NCBI GenBank assembly: GCA_963971225.1
Contig: OZ020269.1
Location: forward strand, 21,016,921-21,080,920
Source: Melieria omissa
Lineage: Eukaryota > Arthropoda > Insecta > Diptera > Ulidiidae
Reading direction: 5' to 3'
DNA length: 64,000 nucleotides
How positions within the stretch are numbered: position 1 is the stretch's first letter; each line of letters opens with the position of its first letter. Positions 2,368 to 58,125 of the stretch are shown here, one piece after another. Made by a program: the position numbers and the translations under genes. Below the pieces are notes generated by a model that had not been told where the DNA came from, searched no databases, and worked only from the letters and a program-made list of their open reading frames with translations.

Positions 2368-3393
2368 CAGAAACTCAGGAAATATTTCGGATTCTCTGAC
2401 AGCTCTATTAAGTTGCTTGAGAGCTACCTTGGCCATCGTTGGCAAAAGGTGGTTATCGGAAATACAAGTTCTGAGCTGAGGAGACTCTACTCAGGGGTGC
2501 CACAGGGGTCCATACTTGGTCCCATTCTCTTTAGCATATTTGTCAATGATATAACATACTGTTGTAATAACGTATCAATCCATTTGTATGCTGATGATGC
2601 TCAGATCTATCTTTCGCGTCCAGTTGGTCTCTCTGAGGACCTAATATGTAGAATTAATGAAGATCTTCGTTCGATTTCATTATGGGCAAAGCAAAACAAC
2701 TTAGCTTTAAATGCATCGAAAACCAAAGCTATATGCATTGCACCGTGCCTGCAGGTTGAAAAATATCTACCTAATCTAATCTTGGAAGATACTTCTATAA
2801 AATTTGAGTCGACTGTTACCAGTCTTGGTTATAAATTGAATTCCAGCTTGGGATGTTCTGATCACATCAACCATACTATAAGTAAAATCTACTTTGCATT
2901 GAGAAAGTTATGGTGCACAACAGACTTTGTTCCTCAGGAGGTTAAACTGAAATTGGTTAGAACTCTTATTGTGCCACTCATATTGTATAGTGAGCTCCTC
3001 TATGGGCACCTTGATAATGCATCATTGCGGAAGTTGCAACTGGCTTTAAATAACTGCGCCAGATATATATATTCAAAGCGCAAGTTTGACCATATTTCCC
3101 AATTTTCCTGCAGGATACTCAACTGTAGTCTCAGTGCGTTTTTAAATGTTCGCAATCTAGTCTTCTTGCATAAGTTAATTTATACAAAGCGACCGGAATA
3201 TCTTTTTAAAAAGTTGCGTTTTTCGCAGTCTGTTAGAACCCATAACCTCATTGTGCCACGTAGTAATTACCTCACGTCCTCTAGAACGTTCTTTGTCAAT
3301 GCTGTAAAACTATGGAATTCCCTACCAAATATTATTAAATCCGAGCAAAATCTAAGGCGCTTTAAGTTGGCAGTATTCAACCTATTTCAGTAA
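2368..3393 (+). pseudogene. Reverse transcriptase fragment of non-LTR element
   Basis: This frame encodes the C-terminal half of a retrotransposon ORF2. Visible RT motifs are SGVPQGSILGP (about residue 45 from the break) and the catalytic YADD box about 40 residues later. A thumb/C-terminal region follows, ending in a block containing KLWNSLPNIIKSEQNLRRFK. The endonuclease domain and the first RT motifs are missing, so the copy cannot act on its own, although the remaining frame has no stop or frameshift. That suggests a fairly recent insertion. The enzyme would copy element RNA into a nicked chromosomal target. It has no relation to the neighbouring host gene. Confidence 0.85.
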
Positions 3394-15404: not shown

Positions 15405-16696
15405 ACACTTCGTTCAATAATGTGTGTGACTGACACATAGATGGCGGCACTAATACTAAATCAATATTTTTTTTCGAAATTGTGAACCTTTCTAGGCTTA
15501 CTGTCAGAATTATATGTCAATCCGACCATTAGTTTACAAGTTACAGTGCTTTAAGTGACACTACTTTTGAGTTTTCAAAAAAAATGAATTCAAAGCAATT
15601 CCGTGTGCTGATTTATCATTGTTTTTTAATGAAAAAAAATACTGTTCAATGCCAGGAATGGCTTGAAAAACATTATTCGGACTCTGCTCCATCAAAAAGA
15701 ACCATTTGCTATTGGTAGCCGAATTCAAACGTGGTCGTACAGACACCGATGACATTCCATCTACTGGACGGCCAAATGACGCTGTTATTCCGGAAAACGT
15801 TAAAAAAACACTGAAAATCATTATGTCCGACCGTAAAGTGAAAGTGGGGGAAATTGCTGACATTCTAAAGATATCAGCAGGCAGTGTACACACCATAATA
15901 CACGAACATTTGGTTATGAAAAAGGTGTTTTCGGAATGGGTGCCGCGTTTGCTCACACCGGAGCAAAAACAACAACGAATCGATGATTCAAAGAGCTGTT
16001 TGGACATGTTTACGCGCAACAAGTCGGAGTTTTTGCGTCGGTACATCACAATGGATGAAACATGGATCCACCATTTCACTCCAGAGTCAAATCGGCAGTC
16101 TGCTGAGTGGCATGCTACCGGTGAAAGCCGCCCAAAGCGTCCAAAGGCACAAACATCGGCTGGCAAGGTTATGGCGTCAGTATTTTGGGATGTGCACGGA
16201 ATAATATTCATCGACTATCTTGAGAAAGGGAAAACAATCAATAGCGACTATTATATAGCGTTGTTGGAACGTTTGAAAGAAGAAATCGCGATTAAGCGGC
16301 CCCATATGAAGAAGAAAAAAGTGTTGTTTCAGCAAGACAATGCACCGTGTCACAAGTCGATGAAAACGATGGCAAAAATGCATGAATTGGGCTTCGAATT
16401 GCTTCCTCATCCCCCGTATTCTCCAGATCTGGCCCCCAGCGACTACTGGCTCTTCGCAGATCTCAAAAAGATGCTCCGTGGTAAGAGATTTGGCTCAAAT
16501 GATGAAGTAATCGCCGAAACTAACGCCTATTTTGAAGGCAAAGAAAAATCTTTCTACAAAGGCGGTATTGAAAGATTGGAAAAGCGTTGGAATGATTGTA
16601 TCTCCTTAAAAGGGGACTGTGTTGATGAATAAAAACGAATTTTGGCAAAAAAATGTGTTTTAATTAGTTAGTCACACACATTATTGAACGAAGTGT
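15405..16696 (+). mobile_element. Mariner transposon, copy 1 (1292 bp)
   Basis: The perfect 27-bp terminal inverted repeats begin acacttcgttcaataatgtg (15405-15431 and 16670-16696). TA target duplications lie at 15403-15404 and 16697-16698. Length and structure are those of a full mariner. It lies in the long intron of the CUB/LDLa gene, in the gene's orientation. A near-identical copy lies in opposite orientation at 50125-51406. Intact ends and high identity imply recent transposition. Confidence 0.95.
15584..16632 (+). pseudogene. Mariner transposase, one frameshift
   Basis: The transposase would bind the inverted ends and catalyse cut-and-paste movement into TA sites. The N-terminal helix-turn-helix region starts MNSKQFRVLIYHCF at 15584. 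The catalytic D,D34D triad is visible as MDETW, QDNAPCH and APSDYW, with exactly 34 residues between the second and third aspartates. Compared with copy 2, one T is missing near 15717, which turns the codons after CYW into an immediate TAG and shifts the frame. From 15706 to the TAA at 16630-16632 the other frame is fully open. All catalytic residues therefore remain encoded, but no single frame covers the protein. Confidence 0.93.
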
Positions 16697-22598: not shown

Positions 22599-22661
22599 GT
22601 AACTAACTCTCATCATTCACCACTCACTCGTCCAAATATTAAATCTCAAATTATCCTACAG

Positions 22662-23176
22662 CGACGAACCGATTTTGTGCATTTCCAAGGAGCTGGTCTG
22701 CGACGGCATACGTCACTGTCCGTACAGCAATGAATACGACAGCGACGAGGACTACGCCATGTGCTGGAAGCGTCGCCGCTACGGCGAACCCATACCGCCC
22801 GCCATGGAAACGGACATCTTCGAGCACTTTGCACTTGAAGTCTTTCGTAATTTGTTCGCCTTCGATGTGCCCGCGTTGCCGACGAGCACCAGTCAGCCGG
22901 ACGTGGATGCCGCGCCTGTCAATTCGACAACGCTGCGCAAAGTAGAGACGGCGCCCACAGTTGTCGGCAATGGCACCAACAACAATGCCAGCGCCGGCAC
23001 AACGCCACTGAACGTCGATAACAGCACCGAAAGCGTTGCTGGCGGCAGCGGACACCATCGTCGCAATTCGACGCGCTCCGGCCTCAACTCTGATCTCTCT
23101 AAATATGGGCCGTGGGGCTATCTGATGCTGGGCATGTTGCTCTGCGGTGGCGCGCTGCTGATTTGCGGCCTCTGGG
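22662..23176 (+). CDS. CUB/LDLa membrane protein, LDLa and transmembrane exon
   Basis: It joins the preceding exon through a 63-bp intron (ttatcctacag acceptor). It completes the LDL-receptor class A module: CISKELVCDGIRHCPYSNEY followed by DSDED and C. The six cysteines and the acidic calcium-binding cluster are in the usual order. A stalk of about 90 residues, rich in S, T and N, has several N-glycosylation sequons (NSTT, NNAS, DNST). One membrane span follows, GYLMLGMLLCGGALLICGLW. The GTAAGT donor is at 23177. This implies a type I surface protein with an extracellular ligand-binding region. Confidence 0.9.
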
Positions 23177-23558
23177 GTAAGTAATGTCGATGTTGTTCTT
23201 ATATGAAATTTGTTCAATTGTTGGTTTCCGTCTCCTGACATGTGCATTTTTTTCCATTTTTTGTATTTTTGTTTGTCTCGCATTGTCACTCATCAATCAA
23301 CACATACACACACAAACACAACAAACAAACTTCCCCTTCCTCTCGATCGCTTCCACACTTTTCGTCCTTTCTATATTAAAATTCAAATTCAAACTCAAAT
23401 CGAATTCAAACTCTCTCTCTCACGCACACATAACAAATTTTCACTCTCCATTATAAAAAACAATTGCATTTCAATCAATCCATTGCTCAATTAATGAATC
23501 AATCAATCGAACAATTTGACCTAACACCTTCTCCTCTTCGAATTCGTCTTCCCCACAG

Positions 23559-27979: not shown

Positions 27980-28179
27980 NNNNNNNNNNNNNNNNNNNNN
28001 NNNNNNNNNNNNNNNNNNNNNNNNNNNNNNNNNNNNNNNNNNNNNNNNNNNNNNNNNNNNNNNNNNNNNNNNNNNNNNNNNNNNNNNNNNNNNNNNNNNN
28101 NNNNNNNNNNNNNNNNNNNNNNNNNNNNNNNNNNNNNNNNNNNNNNNNNNNNNNNNNNNNNNNNNNNNNNNNNNNNNNN
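27980..28179. other. Assembly gap (200 N)
   Basis: Exactly 200 undetermined bases. The round number suggests a placeholder, so the true length is unknown. Reading frames that cross it are meaningless. Confidence 0.99.
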
Positions 28180-33640: not shown

Positions 33641-34959
33641 TTTAAAGCACTGACTTACGCCTAACTGTATGTGTATACATCTAAAAGCTTTCAAGTTGAC
33701 GCTTGGACCAAAGTATGCCGAACTCAAAGGAAACAACAACACAAAAAGTGAAAACTTTCATTATCGAAAACCGTCAACAGTTTTTCACACATTTTTAATT
33801 CTAGGAAATATAATTTTTTGAAAAAGCAAAATTCACGCACACTTTTCTCTCTGTGTACGTGTGACTAGTTCAGCAAGTGACCACGCGGCCGAAAGCAATT
33901 TTATTGGCTCGAGAAGCCAATTGTTGCTCGACGCACGTGGCATTTTCATACGCAAACACATATACATACATACATACATACACAGTGGTACAAATACAAA
34001 TATGCAAGTACAGGTGCTGTGGTAAATAAATTCCTTATTTCAGTAGTGAAATGTTTGCCTTTTTGCTTTGCAATTTTCTTCTTCATTTTTTTTTCGTTTG
34101 TTGCTCTCAGCTGTGGTTTTTTTCCTCTCTGTTTATTTTTGTTTTTGTTCTTGTCCTCGTCATTTCGGTGTGTTTTTGATTTTGCTGAAAAATAAGGCCC
34201 GTGGATACACACTATAAAAAAGCGAATACTAAGTTCTAGGCTTTCCTACAATTGTTGTTGTTGTTGTTGTTCATGTTCGGCTGCTACTTTTGTATAGTTC
34301 GAGTTCGGCACAGACGTGCAAAGATGCTCTTAAAATGTCATTTTCATAAATTTATAATTAAATTGTATTGTGTTGTCCTAGCTGGCGCTTACATTATTAG
34401 ATTCACTTACTTACAGTGTTTTTGTTTATGTTTGTGGCTGTATGTGTGTTCGTTTCTATTTTGTGGATTTGTTGAATGGGCTTTGCGGTTTGTTTCGCAC
34501 GATTTGTTCATTAGATTTAAACATTTAACATTTAGCTGTGCTAAAAATACAAAGTGCTGTAAGTGTCCATATGCTTCTTCTTCTTTTTCTGCCGCAGTAA
34601 CACCTCAAACTGTCTCTTGTAGTTTAACTTTTCTTAAATTCTTTAACCGACATACTCGCGTTCTAACTTCAGTTGACAAAAGAGTATCGTGAAATGCTTC
34701 TTTGAGATATTGAAAAAACATGGTTTCAAGGTGAAAAAGATAGAATAAATTTTGTATTCAGATGGAAATTGTCTTTTAATTCTAAAATAAATCTTATTTT
34801 ATTAATGATGGGGGTTTAATTTTGGGTGGAGATTAACGAGTTTATGTTGTTTTACTTCCTAATGCAGCTTTCTAGAGACCTGAAGTAGTCGTAAATTTCA
34901 TTTCTGAAAACTACATCGATTTTTGTTGCGTAGATCGTTGAGACTAATTCTTCAATTGT
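33641..34959. other. Intergenic, no gene seen
   Basis: It includes a short catacata microsatellite near 33960 and a frame at 34252-34692 that is hydrophobic and cysteine-rich but shows no known domain. I do not call a gene. Confidence 0.45.
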
Positions 34960-35166
34960 CTTCTGATGTTATTGTAGCCAGCTCCTGATTGGCTACAGCT
35001 GGACATCGGCCCAATACATCAATCACCACTTTCTCCTCAAACTTTTTATCAACCTTTAACCCATGTAACATTGTTGAAGAAACAATGTTGAATACAAGCA
35101 AATGAAGCCTATAGAACCTTCAGTTTGTCTTATCAGAGGCAGCCACCTAACCTAACCTTACCAAAC
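34960..35166 (+). mobile_element. Degenerate family B retroposon (copy 3)
   Basis: The 3' part retains cagtttgtcttatcagaggc and agccacctaacctaacc, matching the 3' block and CCTAA tail of the copies at 14111-14410 and 21529-21809. Upstream sequence (atgtaacattgttgaag, acaatgttgaata) aligns only loosely. The 5' border is uncertain. Confidence 0.55.
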
Positions 35167-35469
35167 CTATGAGAGAAGTACAACTGCTCCAAATTTCAAC
35201 CAACTATGTGAAAATTCACCAGTGACAACATTTTATTAATTAATTTTTCCTTATTAACTCATAACTTGGATGATTAGTTCGTATCTAAGAAATTTGGTGG
35301 GTACTAAGGTGTTTGCCTGGTTCTTGCCAAAAATAAGTTGGGCTTGGTGACATTCAACTGGTTCTTTCAAGCAGTCAAGTAAGGCCTCTGATGAATTCTA
35401 TTTAGTCAATTGATTCGTGTCTTAGACACATTACTTAAAAGAACTTCAGCTTTTAGGTGATGTATTACA

Positions 35470-36520
35470 TATTTCGTTGCTGTCTTAGATATTTCGTTCG
35501 TGTCAAGGGTGGCTAGCTGGTTTCCGAGGCAATCAGCTGATGGCTTAGATATGTAATGGGTGCAGCGTAGTTCACTAGATTGCTCGTGAAGGACCGTGTC
35601 AACTGCTGTCTGACTACCAAACACACTCTTCGACAGTTAGCTACCGTCTTCAAAATTTCCTTAGTTGAAACATTGGACAGTTAGCTGGAGTCTTAGGGCG
35701 CTAAATGGTGCCTTAGAGAGCTAAGTAGAGTCTTAAACATTTCTCTCAGCTAGCTTATGTCTCACATAGTTCACTGAAGTCTTAAGCAGCTAGTTGGACC
35801 ATTGTACAATTAGATGGTATCTTAGACAGTTAAGTGCCTCACGCCTTGAATATTAAGGCAGTGTTTAAATAGTTGGTTGTCGCCTCAGGTTGTTGGTTTG
35901 GGCATTGGATAGTTAGCTGGTGTCTTAGACTAGTTAACTGGTAACTTGAATAGCTAAGTAGTGCTTCAAACAGTTCTCTTCTATCTTGGATAGTTGACTA
36001 CCGTTTTAAACATTGCAACGATATTTTTAAACGGCTAGTTGAAGAATTGGACAGTTAACAGGTATCTCAGGGAGTTAGCTGGTGTCTTGGATAGCTAAAT
36101 AGTGCTTCAAGTAGTTCATCGCTCTTCTGTGTATGACAGTGTGACACTGAGCTGGTATTCCAGATAGTTAATCCACCAGTAAAGTAAGACACCAGTCTTA
36201 GAAAGTTAGATGGCTCGCGTCTTGGAAGTTAAGGTATTGTCTCAAATAATTGGTTGGTATCTCAGGTAGATAGTTTCAGCATTGAGTAGAGCGCAGGTGT
36301 GCTATACAGTTAGCTGGTAGCTTGTATGCATACAGTCCTCTGCTGTCTTGGATACTTAACTAATGTCTCAAACAGTTCGCTGAAGTCTCAAGCAATTAAT
36401 TAGAACATTGAACAGTCAATCGTTCTTAGACAGTCTATCTGCTGCTTTGGCTGTCGACTTGGATACTAAGGTAGTGTCTCAAACAGTTGGTTGGTGTCTC
36501 AGACAGTGGCGTCTACAATA
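35470..36520. repeat. Highly degenerate short tandem array (tagctggtgtcttaga)
   Basis: Variants of acagttagctggtgtcttagatag, with spacing of roughly 30-60 bp, fill about 1 kb. Examples lie near 35678, 35910, 36075, 36310 and 36490. Divergence is high and higher-order periodicity is blurred. No reading frame is preserved. Confidence 0.7.
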
Positions 36521-38980
36521 CGACTTACGTCTTGTTCAAAAATCCGCAACTGAAAAGAAAAAAACTAACTGATAAACTGGTTGACGGCTTCAATACTTTT
36601 ACGATGCAAAATATTCTCTTCCATATATTCAAATTTCAAGGCCTATCAAAGAAACATTTCCGTTACTCCTTTCTTCAGCCGAGTGCCTTCTGACTTTTAT
36701 CGCTTCTTTATCAACAAATTCAACTTCCGAGTGTCTTCGATTCGCTTGTTCATTCATTTCTAATCTCCACTTTCCAATATATCTTCTTTTCATATTCTTA
36801 ATTCCCTACTACTTATTATTATTTCTATCTCTTTTTCACCTTTACAAATATCCATTTCATTGCACAATTTTATGGTACAGTGTTGCATTAAATATTTTTC
36901 GTACTGTACTATTTTTTTTGTTGCTTAAAAAAAATTCTGCTTTTCACTGAACGTTAGAGTTAAAAATGCTCAAATGTTTGCTCGGAAAATGTTAGTTTAT
37001 GTATGCAAGTTTGTGTTTTTGTTGTTGTCTCCTTAGGTTTTGTTGCTTGCTCGAAAAAAATAATGTTATCAAATTGTTGTCTTGTACGGTATAAAAAATA
37101 GAAAAAGTTTACAAATGGTTTTTCGGAAAAAATGTACGCTTTGTTTGCAAAAATTTCTTAAACTGTTTCATTTGTTATGGAAAATTTACCTTAGCTTTCT
37201 TCATCTGGTTTTTTGTTGTTGTTTGTATTTTGTTAAATTGCTGCTTGAAATATTTTCCATAAAATGTTTGTTTGTTCCTCTAGTGAGTTTTGTTTGGTTT
37301 GGTTTTTTCATTTCTGTTGCCAGCATTTAGGAGTTTCTGGATATGATCTATGTTTAGTTTTGTTTTCGTATTTCTGGAAAATGATTTGCTTTCATTTCAG
37401 CTTTTTCGGCTCTCGGCTGGACCGTTAAATATGCATATGTATAGGTATTTATGTGTAAATATATGTGTGTATATTTTTTTATGATTGTTTATTTTATTTT
37501 ATTATTGTATTGTTTGTTTTTTTGGGGGCTTGTAGTTAATTTTTTTTAGTTTTTTATTGTTTTTAATTTTCTTTGGTAATTGAGAAAACTTTGAGCGCAT
37601 TTTTGTAGGATTTGTAGGATTTAGTGTAATATTTTGGAATTGATTTTCTCGTTTCTTTGAAATGAGAAGAATGCGTTAATGATGCCAAAAGTTCCAATAT
37701 TTTCGAGTTGAGTTTAAAAAGTTTTAGTTTTAATAACAATGTGTGAGTTTAACTAGATTTTAGAGCTTAAATAAGGTTTTCAGAAATTGTGAAGAGGTTT
37801 TTTTGTGAAGAGGTTTTCATTGAATGGATTTTCAAGGATCATATGCAATTTATGTTATAAGAGGAGAGAGGAGAGGAGGAGTGAATAAAACGGCTTATGT
37901 TCGTAGGCGGTATAGGAAAATTGATGTTTAATGGACCATGAAACGGCTTTAAAAAAAGAAAACAAAAATTAAATTCAAGCATATTTTCTACTTGAGAAAA
38001 TCCAACTCAAATAATTCCGTTGGGGAAGGACTTTTCAATTTGTCAGTTTGTGGATAGTCTGTGATTACTTTGAGACCGTTTTCAATTGCCAGTTTGTGGG
38101 ATCCAACAGAGAAAGTACAGAAAGTTTGACTAGTTGAGAAAGTTTCAGAGAAGTACTTAGAAGATTATATTATTTTTTTTTATTTGTTTACTCCACTTGG
38201 GAGTAAAGGGCCTCAACACGGCCATGCCTTTTGTTGGTTACGTAAATCAATTGAAATCTTGCCAGATTTCTTAGGCTCTCATTTTAATGTGTAGTCTCAT
38301 TTTGATACCATTTATGTGGTAACACCAACAAATCAATTGCCGCCTGTATAACTGATCATAATTTAAGAACGGCTCGACCGATTTGACTAATATTTTTTAG
38401 TTGTGATCACAACTGTCAGGGCACAGTTTGGATAAAAGAACATTTTTAGAAAATTCACTGAGAAAGTCAGGGCGTAGTACTTATTTACAAACTAAGATTT
38501 TTAGTTTAACTTTAGAACTATAAGCTAGGAAAGAAAAGAATAGCTTATAAGGAATGAATCTTGGTACAAACTTAGTATTGAGTTGTCTCCTTTGACAGGA
38601 AAAATAAGGTCAGCATTAAAAAAAGGTTGTCTGGATGAAGATAGTTTCCAAAAATCTTACTATGTCAGCAAGTGGAACCTTACTGCCACAAAATCTGAGG
38701 AGTGCCTTCTAATTTGAAAGCCTTTCATATCGATTAGTATGAGCAATATACTATAATATCATTAGAAAAGAACCCCCACTTGAGTCTAAAGAGAGTCAAA
38801 GGGGGGTTTTGGAGTTTAAACCCCTTCTCCCCTTCTCACACCAAACAAAAAATTCTTTATGAAAAATATGGTTTCAAATAGTATTAAGCTCAAAACTTGT
38901 TCGTAAACAACCTCATCGCTCTCCCTCCACCAAATGAAATCGTGGATGCACCACTGAGATATAGTATAGTCTCGAGACCA
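36521..38980. other. Intergenic, no gene seen
   Basis: AT-rich, with T-rich tracts at 36880-37560. Short frames are compositional. No mobile element was recognised with confidence. Confidence 0.45.
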
Positions 38981-39850
38981 TACAAGACGAAATCAAATTT
39001 GTTTCGAGCCAGAATAGTTATATGGATTATTTTACTTCCCAAACTCAAAGTAGAGATTGAGAGAAAAATGTGGATTTTCTACTTGTCTAAATCTAAGTAG
39101 TGACTGAGGGAAAGAGCTTTGATTTCCCACTCAAATTAGAGACTGAGAGAAAATGTGGAATATTTTCAAGCTTACTTCACTTCTCCCACTCTAAATAGAG
39201 ACTGAGGGAAAGATGTGGAATATTTTTAAAATTAAGAAGTTCAGGTTTGATTGAAACCAGAATAATTTGAATGACATTTATATTATTTGAATTACTACTT
39301 TTTCTTTAAAGATTTCTTTAAAGTTAACTATGGCATTGAGTAAAATCAGAAATATCTATCGCTAAGCACTTAGAGACAGAAAGAGAGATCTGGATGACTT
39401 TCAAGACTATTTCACCGCTTCTGCTGTAAGTAGAGACTGAAAGAGAGTTAACTATAGCATTACGTAAAATAAAAAAATGTTCATCTCTAAGTAGAGATTG
39501 AGAGAAAGATTTGTATTATTTTCAGGACTAATTTACTTCCAACCTCTAAGTAGGAAGTAGTTTCGATATAACTTTAGCATTACATGTATCAAATAAAAAA
39601 TCTAATTCCAAGTGGAGACTAAGAAAAATATATAAATTATTGTCAAAACTATTTAACAACTCCTGCTCCAACTGGAGACAGAGTTTTAAGTCAACTATGG
39701 TTTAGTAAAAAAGTAAAAAATCTCCAACTCTAAGTAGAAACTGAAAAATATAAATTATTTTCAAGACTATATTACTTCTCTAACTTCAATTCAAAGACTA
39801 AGAAAGAGTTTCAAATAAACTATGACAACTATGTAAAATCGAAAATATAT
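38981..39850. repeat. Degenerate tandem array (aagtagagactgagagaaag)
   Basis: The phrases aagtagagactgagagaaag and tggaatattttcaagactatt with cacttctcc recur near 39045, 39130, 39190, 39370, 39425, 39485, 39610, 39730 and 39790. Spacing varies, about 60-120 bp. Non-coding. It lies downstream of the Stac 3' end. Confidence 0.75.
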
Positions 39851-40619
39851 GGAACCTTTGGCATTCCGTTGCGAAATGATGTAATAATTGCACACAATTG
39901 ATGTCTGTATTCTTTCCAACTTGCTTTCTGTACAGTTCAATGTGAGTATGTGGTCCTGCAATGATTTTAGTTTTTGCTCATTGCACGACTTGCAGCTATA
40001 CTTTGGTAATTATCGTTAATTTCCAGAGATCAAAATGCAATTTTGACGTTGCAGCTCCGCACACAACTAACACAAGAATCTTCATCTTCTATCCGTTCGT
40101 AGTCCACTGAACCTTTGAAAATTCGATCACCTTGTCTAACTTCTAACTAACATCGTTTACTGTTTCCAATGGTATGGCGTTGTCTCTCTCACACACTTGA
40201 GCGCACCAACAGTGAGCTACTCCCAACTTGTAACCAGCACTTTAGGCCTCCTCGTTCCATCTGAAGCTGGCGCCGGAGCTGTAGTTGTAGTTTGGCTAAA
40301 CCGAAACCGAAAATGAAAATCGTTGCTCGAGAACCGCAACGACGACAACGAATGCAATGCGTGAGGAGAACCGAGGACTGGGTCGAAATGTTGCGTTGCG
40401 TGTGTGCTCGTTCGATGGCGATGCGGTGATGCGGCGATGTTGTGTTCGATGCCGAATGATATGACAAACATTTGTTCCCTTGTTCTGGCTTTGTGCGTGT
40501 GTGCATCTGCGTGTCCGCTGTCCGCTGTTCGCTGTCGCCGCCGTTGCAGCCGCTCGGCCCGCTCAGCCCCCGTGCGCCACCGCCTAGCAACCGCCATACC
40601 ATGGAAAGGTCCAGCACCA
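39851..40619 (-). other. Downstream flank / probable 3' UTR of Stac
   Basis: This follows the second stop (TGA at 40622-40620) on the minus strand. The first 230 bases are GC-rich like the coding sequence, then composition drops. I saw no AATAAA on the minus strand close by, so the 3' end of the transcript is not placed. Confidence 0.4.
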
Positions 40620-43034
40620 TCAGTGCGGAAGCATCAGCGGTCGCGCTGTGCTGGTGAGTTTGTGGCGCGCCAGCGGCTTCTCGCCGTACTCGTCGAACGA
40701 GTACAGCGGCGAAATCTTGAGGCCCGTCTTCTCGGGTATGATCTTGAAGTGGGGCTGCTCGGTGCTGACAATGAGCGGACGCTTCATCGAGTGCATGTAC
40801 TCGGAGTGCGGCGCGCCCAGCGGCCGGCGCGTGCTCGGGACGTTCATTTTCTTGCAAGGCTCAGGTTTGGCTTCGACGTTCATTTGGCAGTTGTGGGGCG
40901 AGTACTTGTTGGGCTTGTAGATCGAGAAGATGTTGTTGATCAGACTCAGCGCCGAGTGGCCGCCAGCGGACGGGTGATGGCCGCCGGCGGTTGGCTGCTG
41001 CGTCTGCACCGCGTGCTCGGGATAGAAGTTGTTGTACTTGTAGGAGGGCAGGGTGTCCGCGGCCGGGTAGACTTTGTGGCCGTAGTTGTAGGCGCGGTGT
41101 AGGGGCGAGCCCGCATGCTCAAAAAAATGAAACTCGCTGGCGTTGTTGGCCTCGGAGCCGGCGGGACCGAGCTGCGGCGGCGACGGCATGCCCTCGAGCA
41201 GCGACTTCTTGATCATCATGCGCTCCTGCTCGCGGTCGTGCATGTCGATCGGCTGGCCGTTGTTGTAGCAGCCGACGTTGACGTTCTTCACCTTGAGATT
41301 GCTCTGCATGTTGCGGCGCTGCATGTCGAGGTCGATGGGGCTGGGCGGCTTCTCCAGCTCCTCCCAGTACTTCTCCAGGTCGATGTTGAAGTCTTCGAGG
41401 TCCATTTCGGTCGAGTCGGAGCAGCTGTCCTCGTCGTAGCGGCTGGGCGGCTGCACCTCGAGCAGGGACTTGCTGCGCGCCGGCCGCCGGTAGGCGGACG
41501 CATAGTGCAGACTTGGGCCCGCGGTGGACAGGTAGCGCTCGTCGTCGTCGAGGAACTTGTCCTGCAGCAGCAGGCGCTCGCGTTCGTCGCGTATGAAGTG
41601 CTCCAGGTCGGTGTCGTAGGCGACGGCGCGGCAGTGCAGGTGCTCCTCCTCCTCGGCGGCCGGATGGTGTCCGGGGCAGTGCAGGCGCGACCGTGGCCTG
41701 GCCATATGGAGCTGTTGCTGGCGGTGGTAGCAATAGTCTTCGGCGGCGCAGCAACAGATCATCGTGGGTGGCGGCGGCGGTGGCTGCTCGCATTCGCGCT
41801 CACGCTCTCGGCCGCGTCCCGAGTGCAGCGAGTAGCGCGAGGCCGCGGCCACACGATGGTTGCCTCGATGATCCTCGATCCAGTCGGCGGCGGCGTGTAG
41901 GTTCCTGTTGCTACCACCACTGGCGCCAGCGCCATACATGCCCGCGGGCGCGCCGCGACTACGCCACGTACGACGTCCCATCGCGCCCCCGCCACCAACA
42001 CCAACACCAACCGCGTAGCCGGGGTAGATCTCGTCCAGCAGGCACTTGGCGTTGGTGCAGTGCTCGCGGGCGCAGCACGGGTGCGCGTCGTGCGCGTACG
42101 CCAGCGCGCTCTCGTCCAGGCTGTTGCTGCAGTAGTAGCCCATGGACTTGCGGAAGGCCTCTTGTTTCTCGCGGCGCGTGTTACCCGCCGGCGGCAGTTC
42201 GTAGTCCATGACGTCGAACGGTGTCGTCTTGGACGTGCTGGCACTGAACGAGTAAGACTTGGGCACATTGGTGCGGTTCTTCAGGATCGACGTGGTGGCG
42301 CCCTCGTAGGCGCTGCCCATCATAAAGCAGCTCTGTGATTTGGGACACTGAAACTCCTTGCAGCTGGTCGAGCGCTGCAGTCCATAGCCCGGCGAGCCTT
42401 CGCCCTCGCCGCGCTTGCCCCTAGCGCCGCTCCCGCTCCCGCTCACGCCGGGCTGGTCATCCAGGTCGTCGGCCACGCCCACGCCCACATAGAACTCGTC
42501 CTGCTCGCGTATGTTGCGCAACTTTCGATACGTGCCGTACTTGATGCAGTCCGGCACATAGTCCTCCTCCAGATCCTCGGAGCGGTTCGAGTAAATATTG
42601 TCCGTGTACCAGGTCGGGTCGAGTTGCTTCGGTTTCGGTTTAGCCGCTTGCATTCTGTCTCGTTTCGATTGACGATAGCTCTCAAAGCAAATATTCTTCA
42701 TTTTCTCCAGCTTCTGTTCGCGAATGCGCTCCCAGTTCTCCCAATTCTTGTCGTTCTTACTTCTACCGTTGGCGGCGTCGGCGCCGTAGCCGTACACGCC
42801 GCCGCTGCCGCCTCCATTGTTCGGCGCATACTCGCCGTTGTAGTCGAGGTTGGTGTTCTTCAGCGTCTGCTCGCCGGAGCGCGCATCCTTGTTGATATTA
42901 TTGTAGCTGGTCGTGCTGCCACCGCTATCGGTGACGACTATCCTTATCCTACGTTTGGTCTTGTCTAGCAGCTTCGACGACAGCAGCGACGACTTTTGCG
43001 GCTTGTCGCGTTCGGCTGGCGGCCCTTCTGGCTG
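40620..43034 (-). CDS. Stac: Stac in-frame extension beyond the TGA (804 codons)
   Basis: Directly after the TGA that ends the second SH3 domain, the same frame stays open for 804 codons to a TGA at 40622-40620. The first in-frame ATG comes only about 112 codons in, so the extension is not obviously an independent gene. Sequence quality argues for real coding. It is GC-rich with coding-like composition. It begins QPEGPPAERDKPQKSS, then has a basic patch (KTKRRIRI), a charged helix-like stretch (NWENWERIREQKLEKMKNIC), histidine/cysteine-rich runs, an acidic DLEDFNIDLEKYWEELEKPP segment, and a distinctive C-terminus near LKISPLYSFDEYGEKPLARH. It is mostly low-complexity and probably disordered, with no known domain. 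Use needs stop readthrough, or an unlikely alternative acceptor at 43031. Confidence 0.75.
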   Translation of the reverse strand, partial: QPEGPPAERDKPQKSSLLSSKLLDKTKRRIRIVVTDSGGSTTSYNNINKDARSGEQTLKNTNLDYNGEYAPNNGGGSGGVYGYGADAANGRSKNDKNWENWERIREQKLEKMKNICFESYRQSKRDRMQAAKPKPKQLDPTWYTDNIYSNRSEDLEEDYVPDCIKYGTYRKLRNIREQDEFYVGVGVADDLDDQPGVSGSGSGARGKRGEGEGSPGYGLQRSTSCKEFQCPKSQSCFMMGSAYEGATTSILKNRTNVPKSYSFSASTSKTTPFDVMDYELPPAGNTRREKQEAFRKSMGYYCSNSLDESALAYAHDAHPCCAREHCTNAKCLLDEIYPGYAVGVGVGGGGAMGRRTWRSRGAPAGMYGAGASGGSNRNLHAAADWIEDHRGNHRVAAASRYSLHSGRGRERERECEQPPPPPPTMICCCAAEDYCYHRQQQLHMARPRSRLHCPGHHPAAEEEEHLHCRAVAYDTDLEHFIRDERERLLLQDKFLDDDERYLSTAGPSLHYASAYRRPARSKSLLEVQPPSRYDEDSCSDSTEMDLEDFNIDLEKYWEELEKPPSPIDLDMQRRNMQSNLKVKNVNVGCYNNGQPIDMHDREQERMMIKKSLLEGMPSPPQLGPAGSEANNASEFHFFEHAGSPLHRAYNYGHKVYPAADTLPSYKYNNFYPEHAVQTQQPTAGGHHPSAGGHSALSLINNIFSIYKPNKYSPHNCQMNVEAKPEPCKKMNVPSTRRPLGAPHSEYMHSMKRPLIVSTEQPHFKIIPEKTGLKISPLYSFDEYGEKPLARHKLTSTARPLMLPH

Positions 43035-43037
43035 TCA
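43035..43037 (-). promoter_or_regulatory. Stac: Putative leaky stop codon (TGA-C)
   Basis: The last SH3 exon ends with codons for YLQEV, then TGA followed by CAG. TGA with C at the next position is the most permissive stop context known for readthrough in flies. The position matches where vertebrate STAC proteins end (a few residues after the SH3), so it is probably the ancestral stop, with a functional extension added downstream. Confidence 0.7.
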
Positions 43038-43124
43038 CACCTCCTGCAGGTACTTGATGGGGCAATAGCCCTGACGATTGTCAGCGGAGCGCACCATAAC
43101 CATCCCGTTCACCTCGTCACCAGT
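43035..43124 (-). CDS. Stac: Stac, exon with end of second SH3 domain
   Basis: The acceptor is tcgtttttcag at 43125. The exon enters in phase 0 from the previous exon across a 79-bp intron. It encodes TGDEVNGMVMVRSADNRQGY then CPIKYLQEV and the TGA. This is the distal half of the second STAC SH3 domain (the G-x-x-P/C-x-x-Y-L-like ending). In the STAC family the SH3 pair binds the voltage-gated calcium channel loop. Confidence 0.9.
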   Translation of the reverse strand, partial: TGDEVNGMVMVRSADNRQGYCPIKYLQEV

Positions 43125-43203
43125 CTGAAAAACGACACAAACAACAAATGCAGTTTAAGTTTTAAATATCGAAAGCAGCGGGAATTGTAGAGCGTCGCGG
43201 CAC

Positions 43204-43398
43204 CTGTATAACAATTTGATCCCTTAGTAAAGTCATATTCTCTCCACGCTCACCATCTGACACTTGCAGATTGTGCGTGACCTGTAGCGGTTTCTCATTG
43301 GCATTCAGACGTACGCAATACTTGGAGGGGAAGTAGCCAACACGCCCCAGCACTTTGCCCTTCCACCAGTCGGGGTCGGATGTGTCGATTACGGTGAC
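43204..43398 (-). CDS. Stac: Stac, exon spanning SH3-1 C-half and SH3-2 N-half
   Basis: 65 codons, phase 0 at both ends, acceptor gttcttttgaacag-type and donor cag/GTG. It contains the core of the first SH3 (VTVIDTSDPDWWKGK, with the paired tryptophans, then GRVGYFPSKYCVRL). A short linker (NANEKP) follows, then the start of the second SH3 (LQVTHNLQVSDGERGENMTL). This two-SH3 arrangement with a very short linker is characteristic of STAC proteins. These stabilise L-type calcium channels at the membrane in muscle and neurons. Confidence 0.93.
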
Positions 43399-43589
43399 CT
43401 GTTCAAAGAGAACAAAATACGAAACGGTTAAACAGGAAATAGTTAAATGAAATAATTAATGGATATGAAGATTTTTAAAAGATTTGTTGATGTAAGTGTA
43501 GAGTAACCAACACTTTTCAAGTGCCCAGAATCGATCCACCAACACATTGAAAGAAACTAGGTTAGGTTATGTTAACCCTTTTGCTACGG

Positions 43590-50124: not shown

Positions 50125-51406
50125 ACACTTCGTTCAATAATGTGTGTGACTAACTAATTAAAACACATTTTTTTGCCAAAATTAGTTTTTATTCATCAAC
50201 ATAGTCCCCTTTTAGGGAGATACAATCATTCTAACGCTTTTCCAATCTTTCGATACCGCCTTTGTAGAACGATTTTTCTTTGCCTTCAAAATAGGCGTTA
50301 GTTTCGGCGATTACTTCATCAATTGAGCCAAATCTCTTACCACGGAGCATCTTTTTGAGGTCTGCGAAGAGCCAGTAGTTGCTGGGGGCCAGATCTGGAG
50401 AATACGGGGGATGAGGAAGCAATTCGAAGCCCAATTCATGCATTTTTGCCATCGTTTTCATCGACACGGTGCATTGTCTTGGTGAAAGAACACTTTTTTC
50501 TTATTCATATGGGGCCGCTTAATCGCGATTTCTTCTTTCAAACGTTCCAACAACGCTATATAATAGTCGCTATTGATTGTTTTCCCTTTCTCAAGATAGT
50601 CGATGAATATTATTTCGTGCACATCCCAAAATACTGACGCCATAACCTTGCCAGCCGATGTTTGTGCCTTTGGACGCTTTGGGCGGCTTTCACCGGTTGC
50701 ATGCCACTCAGCAGACTGCCGATTTGACTCTGGAGTGAAATGGTGGATCCATGTTTCATCCATTGTGATGTACCGATGCAAAAACTCCGACTTGTTGCGC
50801 GTAAACATGTCCAAACAGCTCTTTGAATCATCGATTCGTTGTTGTTTTTGCTCCGGTGTGAGCAAACGCGGCACCCATTTCGAAAACACCTTTTTCATAA
50901 CCAAATGTTCGTGTATTATGGTGTGTACACTGCCTGCTGATATCTTTAGAATGTCAGAAATCTCCCCCACTTTCACTTTACGGTCGGACATAATGATTTT
51001 CAGTGTTTTTTCAACGTTTTCCGGAATAACAGCGTCATTTGGCCGTCCAGTAGATGGAATGTCATCGGTGTCTGTACGACCACGTTTGAATTCGGCATAC
51101 CAATAGCAAATGGTTCTTTTTGATGGAGCAGAGTCCGAATAATGTTTTTCAAGCCATTCCTGGCATTGAACAGTATTTTTTTTCATTAAAAAGCAATGAT
51201 AAATCAGCACACGGAATTGCTTTGAATTCATTTTTTTTTTGAAAACTCAAAAGTAGTGTCACTTAAAGCACTGTAACTTGTAAACTAATGGTCGGATATA
51301 ATTTTGACAGTAAGCCTAAAAAGGTTCACAATTTCGAAAAAAAATATTGATTTAGTATTAGTGCCGCCATCTATGTGTCAGTCACACACATTATTGAACG
51401 AAGTGT
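50125..51406 (-). mobile_element. Mariner transposon, copy 2 (1282 bp)
   Basis: It has the same 27-bp inverted ends as the copy at 15405-16696, flanked by TA (50123-50124 and 51407-51408). It is inserted in the Stac intron in the gene's own orientation. It differs from copy 1 by small indels, including a 6-bp difference in the 5' untranslated part, a 7-bp coding deletion, and A-run length. The two are clearly the same family. Confidence 0.95.
50189..51231 (-). pseudogene. Mariner transposase, frameshift and nonsense
   Basis: It is open from ATG 51231 through MDETW up to the second catalytic aspartate (HQDNAPC). There a 7-bp deletion between gtc repeats removes the histidine-lysine codons and shifts the frame. 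The remainder, including APSNYW where copy 1 has APSDYW, continues in another frame. The third catalytic aspartate is therefore replaced by asparagine. A TGG-to-TAG change truncates the last dozen codons. At position 15717 of copy 1, where that copy lost a T, this copy is normal. It is thus dead by independent lesions. Confidence 0.93.
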
Positions 51407-53088: not shown

Positions 53089-53184
53089 CTTATAGCCAGC
53101 TTTCAGATCCAACTCATCGGCATGACGCGCTTTGAAATTGTACAAAATTACATACAAATTCGTTGGCAATAAACGGTGAGATTT
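53089..53184 (-). CDS. Stac: Stac, exon with start of first SH3 domain
   Basis: 32 codons in phase 0, with acceptor atatttttcag and donor aag/GTAAAT. It encodes KSHRLLPTNLYVILYNFKAR then HADELDLKAGYK. This is the beginning of the first SH3 (the ALYDY-like motif appears as ILYNF, followed by the E-L-D-L-K-x-G RT-loop pattern). It joins in frame to the exon at 43398 across the 9.7-kb intron. Confidence 0.92.
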
Positions 53185-53350: not shown

Positions 53351-53484
53351 GGGCGATGGGCAGGGTGACGTGCTGGCCGACGATTGTGATTTCTCCATTT
53401 CGTCGGGCAGATCGACGCTGCCGCCACGCATGCCACGGCTCGCATAGAGCAATTTGCGTCCTTGATGCGACGGGCTGGAGGGCG
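53351..53484 (-). CDS. Stac: Stac, linker exon upstream of SH3
   Basis: 134 bp between an acceptor ending ctttacag and a CCC/GTAAGT donor. It enters with two bases of a split codon that complete a serine with the upstream exon, and leaves in phase 0. It encodes a serine/proline-rich linker with SPSHQGRKLLYASRGMRGGS, then VDLPDEMEKSQSSAS, typical of the region between C1 and SH3 in fly STAC. No folded domain. Confidence 0.85.
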
Positions 53485-55035: not shown

Positions 55036-55239
55036 AATGCAAACGGCTGTTATTCGACGGCGGCGTACTGTGCTCCAGATGTCCGCCCGAGCCGCCATGA
55101 TAGTATCCGACGGTCGAGGGGCCCGCCACCGGCTGCTGTCTGCGTCGTATCTGACCGTGCAGCTCCGACGATTCGGGCGAGTCCAAACTCAACGATTTCA
55201 TGCGTAAATTTAACTTTTGACGGCGTGGCGAGTGTGGAG
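55036..55239 (-). CDS. Stac: Stac, upstream linker exon
   Basis: The donor GTAAGT follows 55036, and the one-base overhang fits the next exon exactly. It encodes HSPRRQKLNLRMKSLSLDSP followed by ESSELHGQIRRRQQ and a G/S/H-rich stretch. The basic and serine-rich MKSLSLDSPES region resembles the conserved phospho-rich segment of STAC proteins. The 5' border (acceptor after caacaacaacag) has a weak pyrimidine tract and is tentative. No C1 zinc-finger motif (H-x-F...C-x-x-C) was found in this window. Confidence 0.7.
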
Positions 55240-58125
55240 CTGTTGTTGTTTTTGTTTTCATTTATTTGTTTTGTCAAGTGTTGATTTTTTGTTTTTGGTT
55301 TGATTTTCAAAATTGGTTTTGTAAGAATTGTTTGGTATTTGTTGTTCGAGTGTTGTTAACAAGGATGATGCGATGTTGTTGATGCGAGACGATTTTTTTG
55401 ATACGTGATTAACGGTCGACGCACAAACAAATGCAAATTGTTGTTTTGTAGAAGAAAACAATGTATATAAAATGCATTAATTTTTGTTAATTTGTTAATT
55501 GAAATCTTTGCTACGACTACCAATTAAACATTGAGCAAAAAAGGTAAAGAAATACAAAGACAAAAGTAGTCAAACACGCAGAAATAGCGAGTGAGTTGGT
55601 GTGTTGGGGCGCGCAGTGCTCGCTGATTGATTGATCCAGCTGAGCAGAGCGCGTGAGCAGGTGAGCGAGCGCCATAGAAAGCGAACGAACGAGAGAGAGA
55701 GAGAGCGAGTAGGAGTAGAGTTAACAGTATTCGAGTGTCAGTGTGCGTAGTGTGGACGCGTGTTTTGGAGCTGCACGTAATTGCCGTGTGGAAAAAAAAT
55801 TTACAAAACCTATAGAAAAAATAATGAATTGCAATTTTGTGTGTTTGCTTTGATTGTGTGTTGTGTAGTTTATTCGATGGTTGTGTTTTTGCTCAAAGCG
55901 CTGCACATTGCGGCTGGTCGCGTGATCTCTTGACCCCCGGGCAGCGTCGATGGCTGTGTTCCTTTGTTTTCCAGCATTTTTGTATGTTTTGTGTGCCGCG
56001 TTTCGACTTTGTGACTGTGCAGAGCGTTTGTCGGTGAAGTGGTGTGGTGTGTTGTGTTGTTGTGGCGGCGGTGCCGGTGCTGGGGCTGTGCGCGGGTGGT
56101 GGGTGGGGCTTGGTGCAAGTGCCAGTTGATATTTGCATTTCGTGCATTCACATGGACAAAGTGCGCGCGTACACATGCACTAAAGTGGTTCGTGTTTGCT
56201 TTTTGTTGTGTGCTTTACAGTTGTTTTTCGTTTGCCGAAATTACATTGTTTGTGTGCGTGAACAGAAAAGTTCTACTTTGAGCATTTTTCAGTGCCCATG
56301 CTATTTGTTTTTGACTATCTACAAGGAGGCTGCAAAATACCAAACATGGAAAAAAGGTTGTCGCCACTCGCAGACGTGCCGAACAAACGACCAAATCTTA
56401 AATGCTATTTAACTTGGCTACAACAATAACAAAAGGAATTTTCAAACCATTGCAGGAGAAAAAAGGTGAGTGAAAAGTTTTTCGATATTACTTGGGAGAA
56501 ACATAGAAATGATTTAATTTAATTTAAATGTTTACTGTGCATATATGAATTGTTACAATTTTTTAATAAATATATAAATAATAATAATATAATAATAAAT
56601 AAAATACTAATAATCTCATTTCATGAACATAGTTATACTAGAAAGTCGTTACATAATTACAAAATATAACTACAAATTAAAAACATACCTTACGGCTTTT
56701 GCTAAGACAACAAAATACATGAAAAAGTTATTTCTAACGCTGAATATTTTCCGAGGATTTATTACTCTGTGAGATAAAACTTTTGACCCATATAAACGAT
56801 ATAAGCGTAAAACTAGAGGTCATTCTTAGTAACTTGGCATACTCAGTTTTTTAATTTTCTGATTCGTTGTCCCTTTAAAAGGGCAAAAATATACATATTT
56901 GAAGGTCCTTTCACTGACATATTTTGGAACTGAAACAAAATTGGAAATATAGTCTTGAGGCGATAATTTTCTTCTTTCATTCATTCATCAGTGCACAACC
57001 ACAAATATTGAAATAAATAAGATGAGAAGAACATCAGACCAGAAAAAGAAAAACTGAGCATGCCATGTTACTATGAATGATTTCTAGTTTCACGCCCATA
57101 TAATCTTTTGGATGAGTCTCGACAAAAGTAGTTTTTTGCCGCACAGTGTTTTACATTCTCCTCACTATCTTTGAACAAACAATCTCTTCCGGTCTGCAAA
57201 AGAATTTTTGCTTTTGACTTTTTTGTTCTCATAGTCCATCAACTTATTACTTCAACTAAGACATACACCACCTTGTCAAGGCACTATGCTCCCTAGAGCA
57301 GTGATCAAGAAGATAGCTTTAAGTTCTCATTATTTGAAAAAGTATTGAAGAAAAAGTATTTTCGCAAGATTCCAATAACTTGGAAGTTTAAGTCTGATAT
57401 GCTGCATGGGGTAAATGGGGCTTGCCGACTACCTGGAGAGTTGCGAGTCTGGGCAATTGGCAGTCAAGAGAGAGGTGGTACAATGGACAGTAATGTCCAC
57501 GTGCCTTTGTCCATGGATACTCGTATAACAATACTACATGGGATAGTCGGTAGTTATGGACGTTGGTAATGAGAAACTAAACTTATAGTTCGAGGTAAAT
57601 TTCAAGGTTTCTTAAACTCACCATTTCACAAGACTGGGCAGTTAGTTAGTTAGAAAACACCTGTCATATGATAGAAGACAGTTCCCAGTGAGAAATCTTG
57701 CAATGGGCGGAGCTGTAGTAAACAGATTTTGGAGTTAATTAAAAAAGTGGGTTCTGTTTATATATAAAATTTGTTGAATCTTGTCGTATGTGATCGATGA
57801 AAAATGGTGCTCAGTGCGAGATCTTGCAATAGGTTGAATCGCTATCGCTACTAAAGCCTTGGAAATCGACATAGAATTCAATAGACCGATTTCATACCTA
57901 CTTACTTCATTGTTATATTAAGTGGCGCACAAAGTTTTTGGAAGGAGGGGGTTCTGTCACAGCCATCATGAGCTGTCAGCCATAATGAGCTTAAAAACAT
58001 GTCAGTTCGGTTAGTCTATCTGTTATTTGTGTTAGCTGTCAGTTATTGCTTTTGTGTACTTATTAACTTCCTCCTACATGGATGAAAAAGAATTTATGGA
58101 GGCTGAATGCAGTTTATATTGAAGT
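55240..58125. other. Probable upstream Stac intron, no exon recognised
   Basis: The part from 55590 to 56160 is GT- and GC-richer, with gagagaga and tgttgtgttg tracts. Frames there are compositional and have no domain. From 56470 to 58100 the sequence is AT-rich. No mobile element was recognised with confidence. Confidence 0.45.

What the first reader, a model, noticed from the sequence alone, without database searches (positions are those of the whole stretch)
40620..43037. Stac stop codon (TGA-C) followed by an 804-codon open frame: candidate readthrough giving a giant C-terminal extension
Seen: the SH3-2 exon ends in TGA followed by CAG at 43037-43035, and the identical frame continues without a stop for 804 codons with coding-like composition. 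The first in-frame ATG lies about 112 codons downstream, so there is no simple start for a separate protein. Known: vertebrate STAC proteins stop just after this SH3, and TGA followed by C is the leakiest stop context in flies. Inferred: regulated readthrough appends a large, mostly disordered tail, possibly a channel-scaffolding module. An extension this long would be exceptional.
Basis: partly seen in the sequence, partly recalled or inferred. Interest (0 to 1): 0.9.

Follow-up and report, generated by a model that had tools for sequence, protein, structure and literature searches.

The report
Ancient readthrough tail on fly Stac
In this fly, the gene for the calcium-channel helper protein Stac probably makes a second, much longer protein when ribosomes ignore its stop codon, and the tail is conserved across flies and midges, so it is probably useful and not an accident.

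Summary
On the minus strand the last SH3 exon of an insect Stac gene ends in TGA (43037-43035), then CAG, and the same frame stays open for 804 codons to TGA 40622-40620. In 1000 shuffles the longest open run was 422 codons. The extension is real coding sequence: 125 relatives, and every listed hit with an organism name is a dipteran.

The stop recurs. 110 of 112 newly listed Stac models end exactly there. Seven relatives translated with Trp at the stop run straight across it, and three partial models begin at the next codon. In 9 of these 10 the first ten residues after the stop match the window better than any other part of the same protein. No ATG lies in the first 111 codons. Splicing around the TGA is the main rival. 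No RNA, ribosome or peptide data could be examined.

Best reading: functional stop-codon readthrough giving Stac a long, mostly disordered tail (585 of 804 residues under pLDDT 50). A beetle Stac model ends in related motifs, so the tail may predate flies. The kind is known, extensions over 1000 residues are annotated, and FlyBase may already list this gene; I could not check.

The parts
43035..43037 (-). TGA stop codon of the short Stac form, followed by C; proposed readthrough site
   Evidence: Seven relatives carry Trp at this position and three partial models begin at the next codon
40620..43034 (-). 804-codon in-frame extension plus its terminal TGA (40622-40620)
   Evidence: 125 homologues at E<=0.001; codon-position bias and shuffles
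43035..43124 (-). Last Stac exon: end of SH3-2 and the stop codon
   Evidence: tblastn with Stac models P0126 and P0131; alignment to STAC3 structures
43204..43398 (-). Stac exon: end of SH3-1 and start of SH3-2
53089..53184 (-). Stac exon: start of SH3-1
   Evidence: ends set by eye from reading frame and AG/GT
53351..53484 (-). Stac linker exon upstream of the SH3 domains
   Evidence: ends set by eye
55036..55240 (-). Stac linker exon (APHSPRRQKLNLRMKSLSL...)
   Evidence: upstream end approximate
42972..43040 (-). Rival feature: in-frame 69-nt stretch from GAG|GTGTGA to an AG with 60% pyrimidine upstream; would skip the TGA if it were an intron
   Evidence: no RNA evidence for or against

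Best explanation
The locus encodes two forms of Stac from one message. Most ribosomes stop at TGA 43037-43035 and make ordinary Stac, which ends right after its second SH3 domain. A fraction decode the TGA, in the leaky TGA-C context, with a near-cognate tRNA and continue in frame for 804 codons, making Stac with a long, largely disordered tail of conserved short motifs and a few helices. Shown: the stop, the open frame, protein-level conservation of the frame, recurrence of the stop in other Diptera, and no ATG before codon 112. Inferred: that ribosomes read through, at what rate, and that the tail adds protein-binding motifs to the calcium-channel adaptor.
For: 125 homologues of the extension at E<=0.001 among 7988 scored candidates, every listed one with an organism name being dipteran. 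Of the 112 models newly listed, 110 end exactly in the L-Q/R-E/D-V before the stop. Seven of 232 fetched proteins run across the stop with Trp there, and all seven also run past the terminal stop through Trp, as a TGA=Trp translation would. NCBI partial models of Teleopsis, Lucilia and D. miranda begin at the next codon. The next residue is Gln in all ten. In 9 of the 10 the first ten residues after the stop match the window better (4 to 8 identities) than any other 10-mer of the same protein (best 3 to 5). Stac and extension models lie on contigs of equal length in six named species. TGA and a following C are both favoured in readthrough genes, most of all in ancient ones (PMC5100048 section 7).
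Against: No ribosome, peptide or RNA data were available. No annotated full-length extended Stac was found among proteins of 1218-3876 residues (7979 candidates scored, none at E<=0.001). In P0112 the first ten residues after the stop do not exceed control (2 matches, 67 of 779 control 10-mers as good; it seems to carry a two-residue insertion). The TGA in the seven is inferred from Trp. Met112 is itself nearly invariant in the alignment, so an internal start there is not excluded. [quoted passage not shown] both are optional marks. Evidence that crosses the stop covers ten relatives only.
Confidence: 0.78

Rival explanations
1. The extension is joined to Stac by alternative splicing that skips the TGA, either from GAG|GTGTGA (43040) to an acceptor inside the extension or from the 43204 donor to an acceptor after the TGA.
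For: GAG|GT is a possible donor, and models in Glossina (P0003), Anopheles (P0066, P0072, P0074, P0077, P0081), Choristoneura (P0153) and Phaedon (P0209) continue after LQE as if it were used. A 69-nt in-frame intron 43040-42972 with 60% pyrimidine at its acceptor can be drawn. How the beetle Phaedon joins its tail is unknown.
Against: The Glossina model needs a gap of only about 9 nt, too short for an intron. Acceptor 43031 is weak (40% pyrimidine, AG 9 nt upstream) and would cut away half of SH3-2. Conservation begins in the first codons after the stop, which a 69-nt intron would delete.
Confidence: 0.14
2. The extension is a separate protein, made from its own transcript or by reinitiation or a non-AUG start downstream of the Stac stop.
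For: NCBI annotates it as a separate gene in several species. Met112 is nearly invariant. Near-cognate codons such as CTG occur at codons 17, 18, 22, 58 and 109. Gall midge models begin with a clade-specific block of their own.
Against: Residues 1-111 are coding-conserved before any ATG: W101, E102, R105 and E106 are nearly invariant and the first ten residues are conserved. Three out-of-frame ATGs precede the first in-frame one. The frame agrees with Stac in the window and in the seven relatives that cross the stop.
Confidence: 0.05
3. The TGA is decoded as selenocysteine, is edited to UGG, or is an assembly error.
For: TGA is the selenocysteine codon, and A-to-I editing would give a Trp codon (recalled).
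Against: No Rfam match at E<=1 in 40300-43500 or 34000-40640 (that Rfam holds SECIS models is recalled). The A of TGA follows a G, a context recalled to be poor for ADAR. Models in many species stop at the same place, which excludes an error.
Confidence: 0.03

Closest known systems
Functional stop-codon readthrough genes of insects (328 genes annotated in FlyBase, PMC4528330; Anopheles and Drosophila sets, PMC5100048)
   Same: TGA-C stop, conserved in-frame second ORF, long extension that looks disordered with conserved islands
   Different: 804 codons is far above the usual 8-300 residues. Window and most relatives match at 4 to 8 of the first ten residues after the stop (one of ten at 2), while fly-mosquito readthrough pairs average 3.9. 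Hairpin and CAGCAGCA marks are absent
kelch of Drosophila
   Same: Recalled: UGA suppression adds a second ORF of several hundred codons; named as an early readthrough case in PMC4528330 section 23
   Different: Unrelated protein; its readthrough is experimentally shown, that of Stac is not
Vertebrate STAC1-3 and Drosophila Dstac/Stacl
   Same: Tandem SH3 module aligning to STAC3 structures up to the residue before the stop, E 3e-25
   Different: The solved constructs end there, and nothing in the PDB sequences resembles the extension. Passages found in PMC7573238 and PMC8258685 mention no such tail

Membership tests
Functional insect stop-codon readthrough | In-frame ORF after the stop under protein-coding constraint | tested here: met
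   125 homologues and 34-row alignment; protein level only, nucleotide codon scores not possible
Functional insect stop-codon readthrough | First stop codon conserved across species | tested here: met
   110 of 112 models end there; seven relatives with Trp and three partial models starting after it. TGA identity in the seven is inferred
Functional insect stop-codon readthrough | Leaky context, typically TGA then C | tested here: met
   TGA CAG in the window; Gln next in all ten relatives, hence C
Functional insect stop-codon readthrough | Alternative splicing does not explain the downstream coding | tested here: inconclusive
   Conserved first codons and weak sites argue against it, but no RNA data
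Functional insect stop-codon readthrough | A downstream start does not explain it | tested here: inconclusive
   Conserved residues before the first ATG argue against it; Met112 is nearly invariant
Functional insect stop-codon readthrough | Not a selenoprotein | tested here: met
   No Rfam match at E<=1 in 34000-43500; no dedicated SECIS search
Functional insect stop-codon readthrough | Optional: stable RNA structure or CAGCAGCA near the stop | tested here: not met
   Four folds with z +1.35, +0.09, +0.51 and +2.14; no CAGCAGCA. Found in 9% and 23% of Anopheles candidates, so not required
Functional insect stop-codon readthrough | Extended protein or ribosomes detected after the stop | not testable with these tools
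   Needs ribosome profiling, proteomics or reporters
STAC family | C-terminal tandem SH3 domains | tested here: met
   (Pfam labels SH3-1 only; STAC3 structures cover both)
STAC family | C1 (cysteine-rich) domain upstream | not tested
   Those exons did not match inside the window; fly models such as P0126 carry PF00130

The most novel reading that the evidence does not exclude
Stac of holometabolous insects has carried a readthrough switch since before flies and beetles parted. The tail is constrained much like ordinary protein, against the rule that readthrough regions are weakly conserved, so the extended protein is a main product in some tissue and a distinct calcium-channel scaffold. A beetle Stac model ends in the same motifs, and a divergent Hermetia copy may have become a permanent fusion.
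Probability: 0.35. Interest if true: 0.8.

Novelty: new member of a known kind. Interest (0 to 1): 0.6.

Why it matters
If true, the known roles of fly Stac (excitation-contraction coupling, PMC7573238 abstract start; neuropeptide release, PMC8258685 passages) may have been studied without the form that carries the long tail. It would be among the longer readthrough extensions and an unusually well conserved one. One base change at the TGA would separate the roles of the two forms. It would also correct gene models that split the gene or invent an intron around the stop.

Tried and rejected
Rejected: chance open frame (shuffles, homologues); selenocysteine; a downstream hairpin as the driver; a known domain or solved relative in the extension (Pfam, PDB sequences, none). 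The Choristoneura tail P0153 was not significantly related (best blastp E 0.022).

Led nowhere: search for full-length extended Stac among proteins of 1218-3876 residues (none). Scans of viral contigs and genome contigs for DNA of relatives (none). Literature, ten searches of the held library: CG43729 (one paper, listing only); Dstac; stop codon readthrough + Drosophila + Jungreis (30 of 108 listed); AGAP005258 (none); stac + readthrough + Drosophila + SH3 (none); Stacl (two papers, listing only); readthrough + longest + kelch and others (one); readthrough + insect + 'SH3 and cysteine-rich' (none); stac + readthrough + Drosophila (one review, listing only). Term look-ups for stac inside PMC5100048, PMC3840789, PMC4528330 and PMC4999894 gave none; in PMC13170385 the two matches were 'stacks'. 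Supplementary gene lists could not be opened. The D. busckii extension protein is named CG43729, so FlyBase may already hold this case.

A control mended: one search counted the tested peptide of P0105 and P0003 among its own controls; one search repeats it with the peptide left out and without P0003.

Full report
Observation. The minus strand of the window holds the 3' part of an insect Stac gene. Exons matching Stac models of Bactrocera latifrons (P0126) and D. madeirensis (P0131) lie at about 55240-55036, 53484-53351, 53184-53089, 43398-43204 and 43124-43035. The tandem SH3 module aligns to STAC3 structures to the end of those chains, which is the residue before the stop. The last exon ends GAG GTG TGA, then CAG, and the frame stays open for 804 codons to another TGA. 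There is no AATAAA or ATTAAA inside the extension; the first AATAAA after the second stop is at 38184.

Chance. In 1000 dinucleotide shuffles of the region the longest open run averaged 205 codons and reached 422. GC is 0.83 at codon position 3 and 0.46 at position 2.

Homologues. Searching the extension alone gave 125 proteins at E<=0.001 among 7988 scored candidates; 120 are listed. I read 29 of the 120 and 6 more, saw the two ends of most of the rest (output cut in the middle), and aligned 33 of them with the window. W142, Y143, T144, I765, I766, P767, K769, T770, G771, R798 and P799 are among the columns called invariant. Flies share long blocks; midges and mosquitoes share shorter islands between low-complexity stretches.

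The stop in relatives. A second search, with a query that spans the stop (read as Trp), gave 517 hits, 120 of them listed. Of the 112 proteins newly listed, 110 end exactly in L-Q/R-E/D-V before the stop; the exceptions are Choristoneura P0153 and Phaedon P0209. Many of these 112 are isoforms of one gene and most are from moths, beetles and other non-dipterans, so they are not 110 species. Seven of the 232 fetched proteins run straight through with Trp: P0001, whose SH3 piece is identical to that of B. latifrons, and P0099, P0105, P0112, P0116, P0118 and P0120; for four of these six I compared the SH3 piece, and it is closest to the Diamesa or Anopheles model. All seven also run past the terminal stop through another Trp, the mark of a TGA=Trp translation. 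I therefore read both as TGA, which is an inference. Three NCBI partial models (Teleopsis, Lucilia, D. miranda) begin at the very next codon. In all ten the next residue is Gln, so the base after the stop is C.

Where coding begins. Ungapped, the first ten residues after the stop match the window at 8, 6, 4, 2, 6, 6 and 5 places (P0001, P0099, P0105, P0112, P0116, P0118, P0120) and at 8, 7 and 5 (P0002, P0004, P0016). The best other 10-mer of each protein reaches 3 to 5, and only in P0112 do controls equal or exceed the observed value (67 of 779). So conservation starts at the stop. The first in-frame ATG is codon 112, after three out-of-frame ATGs. Met112 is nearly invariant, which leaves an internal start open, but W101, E102, R105 and E106 before it are nearly invariant too.

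Synteny. In six named species the Stac and the extension model are reported on contigs of equal length, presumably the same contig: Lucilia 64,449,796; Scaptodrosophila 30,391,885; D. madeirensis 20,557,154 (DMAD_02585 and DMAD_02587); Lutzomyia 31,137,733; Phlebotomus 2,674,162; Contarinia 13,623,110.

Alternatives. GAG|GTGTGA could serve as a donor, and gene predictors seem to have used it in Glossina, Anopheles, Choristoneura and Phaedon. The Glossina gap is only about 9 nt. The acceptor at 43031 is weak (40% pyrimidine, an AG 9 nt upstream). Of the in-frame acceptors listed in the first 108 codons only one reaches 60% pyrimidine; it would make a 69-nt intron, 43040-42972, and delete the conserved first codons. 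No Rfam match was found in 34000-43500. No unusually stable fold lies at the stop and no CAGCAGCA 8-mer is present.

Age. The beetle model P0209 (Phaedon) has 178 residues after LQE. Their end matches the fly extension: best blastp E 4e-9 against 121 sequences, and hmmsearch E 2e-8 against a best of 0.078 among 900 shuffled tails, with none of 110 other Stac proteins in the 12 best rows. Shared motifs are KRPL, FxIIPxKxGLxIS and a final SRPL or ARPL. How the beetle joins the tail is unknown. The Hermetia protein P0049 has a divergent SH3-2 and the extension in one model, with Gly at the stop position; it may be a permanent fusion or an annotator's splice.

Structure. The AlphaFold model of the extension has mean pLDDT 46; 585 of 804 residues are below 50. 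One confident helix lies at 96-129, weaker ones around 476-503 and 553-577. There is no Pfam match and no match among PDB sequences.

Literature. PMC4528330 section 23, read whole: 328 genes carry readthrough annotation in FlyBase; extensions run from 4 to more than 1000 residues, most 8-300; long ones look disordered. PMC5100048 section 7 part 1 and section 13, read: TGA with a following C is favoured, more so in ancient cases; readthrough regions are conserved less than ordinary coding sequence, with a mean of 3.9 of 10 residues matching between fly and mosquito. Of PMC7573238 and PMC8258685 I saw passages and the start of the abstract. In ten searches I found no held paper on readthrough of Stac; supplementary lists and several Dstac papers were out of reach.

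Conclusion. Functional readthrough of the Stac TGA is the best explanation (0.78) and splicing around it the main rival (0.14). The kind is known. What stands out is the length, the depth of conservation and the gene. The main gaps are the lack of DNA of relatives and of any RNA or translation data.

Noticed in passing
40587-40622 (-): After the second TGA the frame reads WCWTFPWYGGC and then TAG; the Bactrocera-like P0001 reads WCWTFPWYGDC there and ends, 10 of 11 the same. Either 3' UTR conservation or a possible double readthrough.
   Followed up: partly
15667-16632 (+) and 50458-51246 (-): Two mariner-type transposase ORFs (Transposase_1), 96% identical over 211 residues; recent insertions on either side of the Stac 3' end.
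   Followed up: partly
2368-3393 (+): Reverse transcriptase fragment (RVT_1, E 1e-14).
   Followed up: partly
22603-23184 (+): 193-residue ORF with a cysteine-rich stretch (CDGIRHCPYSNEYDSDEDYAMC) that looks like an LDL-receptor class A repeat and a hydrophobic C-terminal stretch; no Pfam match.
   Followed up: partly
27980-28179: Run of 200 N, an assembly gap.
   Followed up: no
P0049 (Hermetia illucens, no window coordinates): Divergent Stac-like protein in which SH3-2 runs into the extension without a stop (LREVGRGDRK), perhaps a constitutive fusion.
   Followed up: partly
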